From the NCBI RefSeq assembly GCF_017901135.1, contig NZ_CP072801.1:3996501-4060500 (forward strand): DNA of 64,000 nucleotides. The letters are read 5' to 3'. Made by a program: the position numbers and the translations under genes. Below are positions 49,759 to 53,496 of this stretch, piece after piece. How positions within the stretch are numbered: position 1 is the first letter of the stretch; each line of letters starts with the position of its first letter. This DNA comes from Thiothrix litoralis. Its GTDB lineage: Bacteria; Pseudomonadota; Gammaproteobacteria; Thiotrichales; Thiotrichaceae. The notes under the pieces were generated by a model. That model was not told the DNA's origin, ran no database searches, and worked only from the letters and a program-made list of their open reading frames with translations.

Positions 49759-50385
49759 ATGAATATTCTACTGGCTGATGATCATGCCTTGTTTCGTGAG
49801 GGTATGGCTTTGTTGCTGAATCAGCTCTTTCCACAAGCGACGATCATTCACGCCAATAGTTGGGTAGAGGTTCATCAGGTCATACACCAATATACGCTTA
49901 GTCTGGCTCTGTTGGATTTGTCGATGCCGGGGCAGCAGGCATGGGAGGAAGAGTTAACCGATGTGATGAGTGTTGTTACGGGTGTCGCGTGTATCGTGTC
50001 TGGTAGTAGCTCACAAGAACACATTAAAACAGCCTTTGGCATGGGGGTTAAGGGGTACATCCCTAAAACCATGGCGATGGCGGATATGGTATCGGCCTTA
50101 CAGTGCTTAATGGCTGGCGGTATTTATTTGCCGGATAATGTCTGGCTTCAAACCACGGATCCTGGTGCGTCAACGTCATCTGTACTGACCTGGCGGCAAC
50201 GCGAGTTACTGACGCTGTTGGCAAAAGGTAACAGTAATAAGCAAATGGCAGCATTATTGACGCTGACCGAGGGTACGGTAAAACGTCATTTGCATAATAT
50301 TTTCAGAATTCTTGATGCCAATAATCGCGTGGAAGCGGTGAATATTGCCCGTGAACGCAATTTGCTGCTTAACCTTGGAGCGTGA
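49759..50385 (+). CDS. NarL/LuxR-type response regulator
   Basis: The 208-residue protein has a receiver domain (acidic DD at 7-8, phospho-acceptor D53 in LALLDLSMPG) and a C-terminal LuxR helix-turn-helix (LTWRQRELLTLLAKGNSNKQ ... EGTVKRHLHNIFRIL). GAGGGA lies upstream of the ATG at 49759; a GTG three bases earlier is possible. Its 3' end overlaps the end of the receiver fragment of the split hybrid kinase by 17 bases. Its close relative at 56185 shares the ANSWxEVHxV stretch. Confidence 0.93.
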   Translation: MNILLADDHALFREGMALLLNQLFPQATIIHANSWVEVHQVIHQYTLSLALLDLSMPGQQAWEEELTDVMSVVTGVACIVSGSSSQEHIKTAFGMGVKGYIPKTMAMADMVSALQCLMAGGIYLPDNVWLQTTDPGASTSSVLTWRQRELLTLLAKGNSNKQMAALLTLTEGTVKRHLHNIFRILDANNRVEAVNIARERNLLLNLGA

Positions 50386-50719
50386 AATGCGTATGAATCG
50401 CGTGTTTCAAGGTTTCAATGTGGATCGGTTTATACAAGGTCGGTAATTGGCGCTGTTGCAACTCACGGATAATTACTGGGTTGGTGTTGCCGGTTAAGAT
50501 GAGCGTGGGTACGGGGTGCGGCATGTGTGCGCTAATGGCGCTAATCGCTGTGGTGGCAATGTCGCCCCCTTCTAGTTGGTAGTCTGAAATCAGCATATTC
50601 GGGAGCCAATCGTGTAAGTGCTGTAATGCCTTCTGGGTATTGCTGGCAGTTCTGACGTCTAATCCCCATGCGCTGAGTGCCGCCGATAAGGCTTCGGCAA
50701 CTTCACGGTCATCTTCTAT
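50369..50719 (-). pseudogene. Receiver domain severed from its hybrid histidine kinase
   Basis: It encodes IEDDREVAEALSAALSAWG, the phospho-acceptor Asp in NMLISDYQLEGG and the Lys of TLYKPIHIE. There is no start codon: the frame enters from the TnpB element at 50720. Joining HTLLLS (kinase end at 52066) to IEDDR restores one continuous protein. An accidental start inside the IS (MGRMS) might still give a free receiver. Confidence 0.9.
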
Positions 50720-50736
50720 TGACATCCTCCCCACGG

Positions 50737-51837
50737 CTAAAGCCGGGGGATTCCTCCTGCGAGACGGTAATGTCCTACCGCGAGAATGTTCCGGGCTGCA
50801 TTGACATCTCTGTCAAGTAGTGCCCCACAGTCGGGGCAAGTCCATTCTCTTATTCCAAGTCCTGCTCTACCTTTCGGACTGTTGACAGAAATACTTCCGC
50901 AACACGAACAGGCTTGGGTACTGTACGCTTCGTTGACTTCGAGAAACACGCCTTGCATCGCTTTCGATTTTGCATCAAGTTGTGTTTTCAGCATTGACCA
51001 CCCGGCATCCAATACGGACTTAGCCATATTGGTTTTGACGAGTGCCTTACTGCTGACGTTGCCGACAACGATTAATGAATTTTCACGCACCAGCTTGGTG
51101 GTGAACTTGTGCAGGTGGTCAGCCCTGCGGTTTTTAACCTTGGCGTGGATAGCCTTGACGCGCTTCTTTTTGTTGGCGCGTTGGGCTACCGCCAGTTGCT
51201 GTTCAGCATTGCGGTAGAACTGCTTTGATTCCAGTTTTAAACCGTTGCTACAAGTGGCGGTATCTTTCAGACCAAGATCAATCCCGACTTCACCGCGCCC
51301 TGCGACTTCAACAACGGGCACTTGCACCACGACATTGAAATACCAACGTCCACGGGAATCCTCGGTGAAAGAGCCGGAACGGAAGTCGTACTGCGACAAG
51401 CCGTAGCTATCCCACACTTTGAAAAAGTGCTTGTTGTAGCGAACTTGTCCGTCCTTCCACACGGCTGCACCTGATTTGAAGGGAATCCAGCCCAGTGAAC
51501 GACGGCTACCGCCAGACACACGCCAGCGTAGCTTATCTTTTTTGAACTGTTTGCGAGCTTTAGCGTGTGCCTCCGTTACTTCCTGCACCGTCTGCGAGTG
51601 AATGGTGAAACCGCGTGCCTTCTTGAAAATGGCTTGGCTTTTGGCTAGGTCAAATGCTGTGAAGGTGTTACGAATCCAGCCAACACCCGGAACAGGAACA
51701 TAGCTGTAGTCTGCGGTAGTCGCATTGGCTTCATTCCAAATTTGGTTACACTCGAACGCCCACTGCTTTAGGACAGCAGCGTGCTTGTCCTTGACGCGGA
51801 CTTTGAGTGTTTTCAGGATGGTGGCTTCTGTATTCAT
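50737..51837 (-). CDS. tnpB: TnpB-family protein, family B, with non-canonical RuvC-II
   Basis: The 366-residue protein has RuvC-I VGIDLGLKD with D187, a zinc finger (CSCCG ... CPDCG) and RuvC-III DRDVNAARN. At the RuvC-II position it reads SLIVVGNVSS, where canonical proteins have IEDL; the Glu is absent (G259). Nearby E300 and E303 in FLEVNEAYSTQ are conserved in the decayed copy and could substitute. Its TAG stop lies in the loop of the right-end hairpin. It starts 37 bp from the divergent RHH gene. Confidence 0.9.
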   Translation of the reverse strand: MNTEATILKTLKVRVKDKHAAVLKQWAFECNQIWNEANATTADYSYVPVPGVGWIRNTFTAFDLAKSQAIFKKARGFTIHSQTVQEVTEAHAKARKQFKKDKLRWRVSGGSRRSLGWIPFKSGAAVWKDGQVRYNKHFFKVWDSYGLSQYDFRSGSFTEDSRGRWYFNVVVQVPVVEVAGRGEVGIDLGLKDTATCSNGLKLESKQFYRNAEQQLAVAQRANKKKRVKAIHAKVKNRRADHLHKFTTKLVRENSLIVVGNVSSKALVKTNMAKSVLDAGWSMLKTQLDAKSKAMQGVFLEVNEAYSTQACSCCGSISVNSPKGRAGLGIREWTCPDCGALLDRDVNAARNILAVGHYRLAGGIPRL

Positions 51838-51874
51838 GTGGTATATTCTACACTCAGTTAACTAGGAGAACAAC

Positions 51875-52042
51875 ATGGAAAGCACAAAATACGCATCAGT
51901 CAGGGTGAAAGTTGAAACCTATCGTGACTTGAAAAAAGCCGCGATAGATGAAGGCATTCCATTCACACAGTTGATTGACAAGCTGCTTGCTCTTTACCAA
52001 GAAAGAGAAGTTAGCCAAAGACGCTTATATCCCCATGCCTAA
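51875..52042 (+). CDS. Small ribbon-helix-helix-like protein inside the TnpB element
   Basis: The 55-residue protein starts at an ATG seven bases after AGGAG. It begins MESTKYASVRVKVETYRDLK, followed by a KAAIDEGIPFTQLIDKLLAL helix pair, the strand-helix-helix layout of Arc/CopG proteins. It is divergent from tnpB and occupies the place where IS605 elements carry tnpA. Its TAA stop lies in the loop of the left-end hairpin. It may repress tnpB from the shared 37-bp gap, which is an inference. Confidence 0.75.
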   Translation: MESTKYASVRVKVETYRDLKKAAIDEGIPFTQLIDKLLALYQEREVSQRRLYPHA

Positions 52043-52053
52043 AGGCAGGGGTA

Positions 52054-53496
52054 TTACGCGATTTGTGATAACAGTAAGGTATGCAAGTTTTGCGGTGGTG
52101 ACTGCGCGAGTTGTGTATCGTGAGTGTGTGGGGTCAGTGCTGTGGGCGAGCCTTCTGTCAATCGGATGCGTGCAGGAATATCCAGCATAAAACGGCAACC
52201 GAGGTTCGGCGTAGAGACCAGACGTAGTTCGCAGCCAAGTAAATCGGTCAGGCGTTTGACGATGGATAAACCCAGCCCAACACCTTTAGTGCGATTTCGT
52301 TCAGGGTTATCCAGTTGATAAAAGGCTTCAAAAATACGCTGTTGCTCGTGTTGAGGGATACCTTTGCCGTTATCCCAGATTTCCAGCCGTAAGTCGTTGC
52401 CGTGGCGGCGGATACCCAAGAGAATTTTACCGGGTCGCCCCATGTGTTTGATGGCATTGTCCAACAAGTTACTCAGAATGCGGTTCAGTTGTTCAGGGTC
52501 GGTGAAGAGGTACTGACGGGTTTCTACATAATGTAACTCAATGTCTTGGGTGTCGGCGATGTCGGCATAGCGTTGATAGAGCTGCCGAAACAGTTGGTTA
52601 AGTGCAACGGGTTGCGGTTGGGTTTGGATAGCTCCTGCGTCCAGTTTGGCGACATCCAGCAGGGCTTCCAATAAACTGGCAAGGTTTTTGGAAGATTGGC
52701 TGAGCTTGTTAAGCAGGGTTTGCTGTTTGCTGTCAGTGAGTCGTTCGGCAAGTAGACCTTCAAATAAACGCATCGCTTGCATGGGTTGGCGTAAGTCATG
52801 GCTGGCGGCAGCGAGAATACGGGTTTTTTCTCGGCTGATGGTTTCTACTTGTTGTTTTTCCTTGGATAGCGCATCCAGCAGACGCTGGTTCTCCTCGCGT
52901 TGATACAGTACCTCCATGTAAATTTGGTTCAACTTGAGGCCGTAGACACAGCCGACTATGGCAAAAATGGTAGCAGCCGCTGCAATCCAGTAAAACAAGA
53001 GGCCACCTAACCACAAGGCCATGAGAATGACGGGGATGAGGCACGCGAGAACCCCGGTTATGGTGACTGCTTTGTGTAAAGGCGTGGAGACTACATAGCC
53101 TAGTACGACTGCGCAAATGGTGATGCTCAGGAAAAAAGCACTGGTGATATTTTCAGGCTCAATGAGCACTGCCCAGCCAATGCCCCACGTTGCCCCTGTT
53201 AAAAGGCTCAAGGGTAGTTCCAGACCATATTCCCACATGTGGCGGATAGATTGGTGATTGTGGCGGTAACGCCAATAGAGGAACAGCAGAATGCTGCTCC
53301 AGAACGCTTGAAAGCCTAACCAGACCAATACCTTGGTGGTAAGCTTCGCGTCCAGTGAGATGAGTGCTATTGCCAGTAGTAACGAGGTAATCAGCACGGC
53401 AAGCGCAGAATTGAAGTAATTGCTAATGGCAGCCCGTATCTTTTCATCAAGAAAGTCGGTTGTTGGCCTGGATGGAATATGGGTAAGCTCTGTCAT
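52054..53496 (-). CDS. Histidine kinase part of a hybrid kinase truncated by a TnpB element
   Basis: It has several N-terminal membrane helices (about residues 35-195), a coiled-coil linker and a HisKA domain with AASHDLRQPMQAMRLFEG. The ATPase boxes follow: LLDNAIKH (N), DNGKGIP (G1), GVGLGLSIVKRL (G2). The last codons before the stop come from the IS end; host sequence ends at 52066. The original protein would have 593 residues with the receiver at 50369-50719. The kinase core is whole, so it may still work without its receiver. Confidence 0.9.
   Translation of the reverse strand: MTELTHIPSRPTTDFLDEKIRAAISNYFNSALAVLITSLLLAIALISLDAKLTTKVLVWLGFQAFWSSILLFLYWRYRHNHQSIRHMWEYGLELPLSLLTGATWGIGWAVLIEPENITSAFFLSITICAVVLGYVVSTPLHKAVTITGVLACLIPVILMALWLGGLLFYWIAAAATIFAIVGCVYGLKLNQIYMEVLYQREENQRLLDALSKEKQQVETISREKTRILAAASHDLRQPMQAMRLFEGLLAERLTDSKQQTLLNKLSQSSKNLASLLEALLDVAKLDAGAIQTQPQPVALNQLFRQLYQRYADIADTQDIELHYVETRQYLFTDPEQLNRILSNLLDNAIKHMGRPGKILLGIRRHGNDLRLEIWDNGKGIPQHEQQRIFEAFYQLDNPERNRTKGVGLGLSIVKRLTDLLGCELRLVSTPNLGCRFMLDIPARIRLTEGSPTALTPHTHDTQLAQSPPQNLHTLLLSQIA

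What the first reader, a model, noticed from the sequence alone, without database searches (positions are those of the whole stretch)
50720..52065. TnpB element with a divergent RHH-like mini-gene, both stops in the terminal hairpin loops
The 1346-bp element holds tnpB (minus) and a 55-codon RHH-like gene (plus) back to back with 37 bp between the starts. The tnpB TAG lies in the TTTA/CTTTAG loop of the right-end hairpin, and the RHH TAA lies in the equivalent loop of the left-end hairpin. IS605 elements usually have tnpA in this position. Seen directly: sequence, coding frames, hairpins. Inferred: the RHH protein represses tnpB or helps recognise the ends.
Basis: partly seen in the sequence, partly recalled or inferred. 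Interest (0 to 1): 0.68.

Follow-up and report, generated by a model that had tools for sequence, protein, structure and literature searches.

The report
TnpB transposon with divergent repressor-like partner
A small jumping gene that carries an RNA-guided DNA-cutting enzyme (TnpB) also carries, back to back with it, a tiny DNA-binding protein that most likely switches the enzyme off, and the same kind of pair turns up in many related elements with quite different versions of the small protein, so these ancestors of CRISPR enzymes may often come with their own off-switch.

Summary
A 1349-bp IS200/IS605-type element (window 50719-52067) without tnpA carries tnpB on the minus strand and a divergent 55-codon gene 37 bp away, and both stop codons lie in the terminal hairpin loops. 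An uninterrupted relative confirms both ends to the base: insertion 3' of TTAT with no target duplication, splitting a hybrid histidine kinase. The small gene is real: dN/dS is about 0.14 against a congener, and profile and fold searches return ribbon-helix-helix (RHH) proteins. It is not a one-off. Of 97 distinct loci encoding TnpB at least 50% identical, 16 have an RHH-type gene (14 readable, two decayed) starting within about 70 bp on the opposite strand; the RHH proteins fall into about six dissimilar groups. Two further loci have RHH and tnpB in one operon. tnpB looks leaderless, with its -10 box inside the gap, where several pairs have palindromes or helically spaced repeats. Best reading: an autorepressor of itself and of the tnpB/guide-RNA transcript. 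No binding or expression data exist, the window's own palindrome is imperfect, and many relatives lack or have lost the gene. 'End recognition' is not supported. No held paper describes the pairing.

The parts
50719..52067 (-). whole element, 1349 bp, in tnpB orientation LE (52067) to RE (50719)
   Evidence: RE boundary ...GGATGTCAA| shared by about 30 copies; both ends base-exact against the empty site in L111
50719..50722 (-). RE terminus TCAA
   Evidence: same as the IS608 RE cleavage motif (own knowledge)
50728..50750 (-). RE hairpin with TTTA loop; also the expected 3' part of the guide (omega) RNA
   Evidence: omegaRNA role inferred from PMC8612924 and PMC10278001
50737..51837 (-). tnpB, RNA-guided endonuclease TnpB, 366 aa, stop TAG in the RE hairpin loop; RuvC aspartates and the alternative glutamate present, canonical glutamate replaced by G
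   Evidence: (NF040570 E 1.3e-66)
51836..51853 (.). candidate RHH operator ATGTGGTATATTCTACAC (6 of 9 symmetric pairs here, 8 of 9 in L084/L085); overlaps both -10 boxes and the tnpB start
   Evidence: inference
51845..51850 (-). tnpB -10 box TAGAAT, 7 nt before ATG (leaderless arrangement)
   Evidence: TAnnnT at this offset in 28 of 87 related loci against 0-5 at most other offsets
51842..51847 (+). candidate RHH-gene -10 box TATATT
   Evidence: sequence reading; no full sigma-70 match found by the scan
51864..51868 (+). RHH-gene ribosome binding site AGGAG
   Evidence: sequence; conserved in L084/L085
51875..52042 (+). RHH (Arc/CopG-like) gene, 55 codons; the last codons are transposon left-end DNA, TAA in the LE hairpin loop
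52031..52051 (.). LE hairpin with TAAA/TTTA loop
52052..52055 (-). LE guide AATA at the foot of the LE hairpin
   Evidence: last base of guide covaries with last base of target in 22 of 23 LE sequences
52068..52071 (-). target TTAT flanking the LE (outside the element)
52054..53496 (-). histidine kinase part of the interrupted hybrid kinase; its last 14 bases, including the stop, come from the element's LE
50369..50734 (-). receiver domain part of the same interrupted gene; its predicted GTG start lies in the element's RE

Best explanation
The element is a non-autonomous IS200/IS605-type transposon (ends mobilised in trans by a Y1 TnpA) that carries TnpB together with a dedicated RHH repressor. 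The RHH dimer most likely binds the 37-bp divergent promoter region, where both -10 boxes overlap a palindromic site, and shuts down its own gene and the tnpB transcript. The 3' end of that transcript is the guide RNA, so one repressor would hold back both protein and guide. The pair would behave like an autoregulated brake: quiet in an established host, derepressed when the element enters a cell without repressor or when repressor runs low. Shown: gene reality, RHH fold, recurrence, element ends, trans-mobilisation setting. Inferred: binding, repression, timing.
For: RHH frame: dN/dS 0.137 against L085, 15 of 24 changes at third codon positions; 0.08 and 0.25 in two other RHH groups. RHH fold: PHROG 3180 Arc-like repressor E 2.7e-5 (window) and 1.1e-6 (L085); AlphaFold2 with 13 rows gives an unpaired N-terminal segment plus helices 13-26 and 30-49, pLDDT about 90 over residues 11-40, and Foldseek's top PDB hits are RHH proteins, probability up to 0.99; family profile finds StnY, 56B, AvtR, CopG, Mnt, Arc. 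Recurrence: divergent RHH gene or remnant in 16 of 97 distinct loci with TnpB >=50% identity, against one RHH frame elsewhere among 5152 ORFs; L156 and L212 partners pass Pfam gathering cut-offs; co-directional, start/stop-overlapping RHH-tnpB operons in L275 and L318. Operator anatomy: tnpB -10 exactly 7 nt before ATG across the clade; 18-bp perfect palindrome in L131, 8 of 9 in L084/L085, direct repeats of 13 bp (22 bp apart) in L149, 10 bp (21 bp apart) in L256, 9 bp (11 bp apart) in L156 and L270. tnpB mRNA is processed into omegaRNA (PMC10278001).
Against: No binding, transcription or phenotype data. The window copy's palindrome alone is not significant (6 of 9, matched in about 30% of shuffles), and excess repeats in RHH gaps over controls are only suggestive (direct repeats p 0.056, inverted repeats p 0.71). 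RHH is dispensable: decayed in L005, L031, L034 and L094 and absent from most related elements. The sigma-70 scan finds no full promoter. The small survey profile was seeded with hits picked by eye, though Pfam, PHROG, PDB and fold searches confirm them independently.
Confidence: 0.68

Rival explanations
1. The RHH protein is an antitoxin-like inhibitor that binds the TnpB protein directly (type II TA logic).
For: Small RHH proteins are common antitoxins; weak Pfam hits to CopG_antitoxin and VAPB_antitox models; TnpB is a DNA-cleaving enzyme that could be harmful.
Against: The C-terminal tail, where RHH antitoxins bind toxins, is transposon-end DNA read in different frames in close relatives (window, L085, L031, L005) and almost absent in L149 and L156. 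Many close TnpB copies exist without any RHH gene.
Confidence: 0.08
2. The RHH protein is a transposition factor that recognises the element ends or loads a trans-acting TnpA.
For: It occupies the place of tnpA, no RHH element surveyed carries tnpA, and the ends are intact and mobile (second identical copy at another site).
Against: The operator-like motif is found once in the window, in the gap, not at the ends; elements with and without RHH share ends, guide rules and targets; TnpA alone performs the reaction in characterised elements (PMC8612924).
Confidence: 0.06
3. The RHH protein mainly acts in trans on other elements: copy-number control or exclusion of incoming sister copies.
For: The genome holds two identical RHH copies and many related elements; RHH autorepressors of mobile elements commonly give such immunity (own knowledge).
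Against: RHH-lacking relatives have no palindrome at the tnpB start, so would escape. This overlaps with the main explanation rather than excluding it.
Confidence: 0.1
4. The RHH gene is passenger DNA or a captured host gene with no role for the element.
For: It is lost or decayed in several copies; most related TnpB elements lack it.
Against: Purifying selection; recurrence at one position in about six dissimilar RHH groups; promoter and operator layout.
Confidence: 0.08

Closest known systems
IS200/IS605 family, tnpB-only (IS1341-like) elements
   Same: LE/RE hairpins, guide at the foot of the hairpin, insertion 3' of a fixed tetranucleotide without target duplication, TnpB next to RE
   Different: carries a divergent RHH gene where tnpA would be; target TTAT
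IS608 (TTAC target) and ISDra2 (TTGAT target)
   Same: RE ending TCAA and GAAT/AAAG-type guides resemble IS608; tnpA and tnpB arrangement in sister elements L003, L087 and L096
   Different: no tnpA in the element; RHH partner; target last base T instead of C with matching guide change
Arc/CopG/Mnt-type RHH autorepressors of phages and plasmids
   Same: about 50 residues, RHH fold, gene next to a palindromic promoter region, divergent or leader position
   Different: partner gene is an RNA-guided nuclease of a transposon
Ealt TnpB / Fanzor-like RuvC (PMC10711439)
   Same: glutamate about six residues before the first zinc-finger Cys instead of the canonical place
   Different: DLG rather than DPG at RuvC-I; gammaproteobacterial IS elements

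Membership tests
IS200/IS605 transposon | subterminal hairpins at both ends | tested here: met
   conserved across copies
IS200/IS605 transposon | insertion 3' of a short fixed target without target duplication | tested here: met
   base-exact empty site in L111, TTAT|TAGAAG
IS200/IS605 transposon | target recognised by a guide at the hairpin foot | tested here: met
   guide/target last-base covariation in 22 of 23 LE sequences
IS200/IS605 transposon | own Y1 TnpA | tested here: not met
   no tnpA in the element; an intact sister tnpA with the same LE and RE hairpin sequences lies at G000:C1:4190134-4190517; so a non-autonomous member
TnpB nuclease | TnpB family profile | tested here: met
   NF040570 225 bits against cut-off 100
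TnpB nuclease | canonical RuvC D-E-D | tested here: not met
   both D present, canonical E is G; alternative E present throughout the clade
TnpB nuclease | RNA-guided cleavage activity | not testable with these tools
   -
Ribbon-helix-helix superfamily | sequence profile match | tested here: met
   PHROG 3180 E 2.7e-5; Pfam matches of the window protein below cut-off; related partners above cut-off; PDB profile hits
Ribbon-helix-helix superfamily | strand-helix-helix fold, dimer with intertwined ribbon | tested here: inconclusive
   monomer model and Foldseek agree, no E below 0.001; dimer not modelled
Ribbon-helix-helix superfamily | sequence-specific DNA binding | not testable with these tools
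   candidate operators only
Type II toxin-antitoxin system | antitoxin with a conserved toxin-binding tail next to its toxin gene | tested here: not met
   tail frame not conserved; no PADLOC hit for the RHH protein
TldR (nuclease-dead TnpB repressor) | RuvC catalytic residues lost | tested here: not met
   both aspartates and the alternative glutamate conserved

The most novel reading that the evidence does not exclude
RHH (and possibly other small) repressors are a general, repeatedly acquired regulatory partner of TnpB: compact transposons run their RNA-guided nuclease as a repressor-controlled module that is silent in established hosts and fires on entry into repressor-free cells.
Probability: 0.4. 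Interest if true: 0.78.

Novelty: new variant of a known kind. Interest (0 to 1): 0.62.

Why it matters
TnpB is the ancestor of Cas12, but how transposons control it is largely unexplored; the known layer found here is a cis effect of its mRNA (PMC10278001 abstract). A recurrent, dedicated DNA-binding partner next to leaderless tnpB gives a directly testable answer, offers natural off-switches for TnpB tools, and shows that the slot beside tnpB is modular (tnpA on either strand, RHH divergent, RHH in operon, or nothing).

Tried and rejected
Depth-2 AlphaFold model gave helix over the ribbon region and no usable fold call; solved with a 13-row alignment. PDB sequence search with single or five-row queries found nothing. 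Class-wide and viral searches with the window RHH protein found no relatives beyond the genus; plasmid search gave only one weak, unrelated-looking hit. Fourteen TnpB plasmid loci had tnpA or nothing, no RHH. Rfam has no match. The genome's 384-aa TnpB copies shown (six) have short left ends and no clear partner gene. A TnpB tree could not resolve whether RHH was gained once or several times; it does show RHH and tnpA forms interleaved in one well-supported clade (100/97). A general excess of inverted repeats in RHH gaps was tested and not found. The PNAS TnpB classification paper is not held.

Full report
Observation. The sequence is as described. tnpB is 50737-51837 on the minus strand, the small gene is 51875-52042 on the plus strand, and 37 bp lie between the starts. 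Both terminal hairpins fold better than shuffles, and both stops lie in their loops. The ends can be fixed exactly. About 30 copies share the right end ...GAGGATGTCAA and then diverge. A congener (G425, locus L111) has the uninterrupted 612-aa hybrid histidine kinase, and its DNA aligns across the joined flanks without gap at the insertion point. The element is therefore 50719-52067, inserted after TTAT without target duplication. It truncates the kinase (52054-53496) and leaves an orphan receiver domain (50369-50734).

Kind of element. Guides at the foot of the LE hairpin end in G where the target is TTAC and in A where it is TTAT, in 22 of 23 distinct LE sequences, as expected for the IS608-type mechanism. 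The window element has no tnpA. A sister in the same genome (L003) with 93% identical TnpB has an intact Y1 tnpA (L123) and the same LE and RE hairpin sequences, so mobilisation in trans is plausible. A second, identical copy of the window pair exists at G000:C1:1041376-1042675.

The small gene is real. Between the window and L085 the first 41 codons differ at 24 sites, 15 of them third positions, dN/dS 0.137. The start region, ribosome site and 37-bp gap are conserved in L084 and L085. Decayed versions occur in L005 (start lost), L031 (ATA in place of ATG), L034/L035 (frame broken) and L094 (remnant). The window protein matches PHROG 3180, Arc-like repressor, at 2.7e-5 and L085 at 1.1e-6. Single-protein Pfam matches stay below cut-off.

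Recurrence. I read the divergent strand upstream of TnpB genes in genome, viral-contig and plasmid loci. Different RHH-like genes sit divergently at the same place: L149/L256, L131, L132/L152/L263, L155/L156/L270, L258 (window type), L295, L212, and L053 (Dokdonella MAG). Two of these partners pass Pfam cut-offs by themselves: L212 for Arc (38.3 against 20.4) and L156 for RHH_1 (27.1 against 20.5) and RHH_5. In 158 distinct loci, 16 have a divergent RHH gene within about 70 bp of the tnpB start, all among the 97 loci with TnpB at least 50% identical; these 16 include the decayed L005 and L031. In those 97 loci tnpA is found in 15. Only one RHH frame lies elsewhere in the 5152 ORFs scanned. L275 and L318 instead have an RHH gene upstream on the same strand, overlapping the tnpB start. 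RHH groups are mutually dissimilar (for example 7 of 42 identical residues, window against L131), although TnpB is 56-69% identical. This is either repeated acquisition or fast divergence; the tree does not decide. A caveat: the small survey profile was seeded with hits chosen by eye, so it recovers its own seeds by construction and is weak for distant types.

Fold. An alignment of 13 partners shows the RHH pattern. Its profile pulls out PDB RHH proteins: StnY 4.4e-7, 56B 3.6e-6, AvtR 5.9e-5, CopG 2.8e-4, Mnt, Arc, omega; two designed repeat proteins score above them through one short stretch. The model of the window protein has an unpaired N-terminal segment, then helices 13-26 and 30-49. Foldseek's PDB list is almost wholly RHH proteins with probabilities up to 0.99, although E-values stay above 0.1 as expected for 55 residues.

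Mechanism. Across the clade a -10-like TAnnnT lies exactly 7 nt before the tnpB ATG in 28 of 87 loci (background mostly 0-5 per offset), so tnpB is probably leaderless. In the window this is TAGAAT at 51845-51850, which overlaps a plausible -10 of the RHH gene (51842-51847) and a palindrome-like site (51836-51853). The site is 8 of 9 symmetric in L084/L085 (reached by fewer than 1% of shuffles) but only 6 of 9 in the window (reached by about 30%). L131 has a perfect 18-bp palindrome one base away from the same position. L149, L256, L156 and L270 have 9-13-bp direct repeats spaced 11, 21 or 22 bp, that is one or two helical turns. Pooled, direct repeats are suggestive (p 0.056) and inverted repeats not enriched. 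The motif is found nowhere else in the window, which speaks against binding at the transposon ends. I therefore favour an autorepressor of the divergent promoters. Since TnpB makes its guide from its own mRNA (PMC10278001), this would control protein and guide together.

Stop codons in the loops. tnpB's TAG in the RE loop is general in the copies read. The RHH gene simply runs into the left end: its last codons are LE DNA, read in different frames in close relatives. In the window, L131, L132 and L152 the stop falls in the LE hairpin loop; by reading the sequence it also does in L031 and L212. In L084 and L085 it falls in the arm, and in L005 it falls past the hairpin. This is compaction rather than a conserved device.

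TnpB itself. The clade lacks the canonical RuvC-II glutamate (G at the ISDra2 E278 position) and has instead a conserved glutamate six residues before the first zinc-finger cysteine, the 'alternative E' described for Fanzor-like enzymes (PMC10711439), here with DLG rather than DPG.

Literature. Searches of the held library for TnpB with ribbon-helix-helix, CopG, Arc or RHH found no description of the pairing. Subscription papers are not held, so prior description cannot be excluded.

Verdict. A real, recurrent arrangement in a known transposon family; new variant, with a testable and probable regulatory role.

Noticed in passing
50369-50734 and 52054-53496: The element splits a hybrid histidine kinase gene; the kinase half takes its stop codon from the transposon left end, and an intact 612-aa homologue exists in a congener (L111).
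   Followed up: yes
window 52052-52071 and other left ends (L001-L090): The last base of the LE guide covaries with the last base of the target (G with TTAC, A with TTAT) in 22 of 23 sequences, and the tnpA-bearing sister L003 uses TTAC while the RHH elements use TTAT.
   Followed up: yes
50737-51837: TnpB clade with the alternative RuvC-II glutamate (VNEAYSTQACSCC) but DLG at RuvC-I, in gammaproteobacteria.
   Followed up: partly
G000 whole genome: 114 TnpB-like matches in one 4.28-Mb genome, including many near-identical copies of a 384-aa TnpB.
   Followed up: no
L275:1385-1513, L318:1382-1510: RHH gene on the same strand as tnpB with overlapping stop/start (ATGA or TTGA), an operon version of the pair.
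   Followed up: partly
G423 loci L087, L091, L094, L096-L103: One congener genome holds close TnpB elements with all partner types: RHH, RHH remnant, tnpA on the same strand and tnpA divergent.
   Followed up: partly
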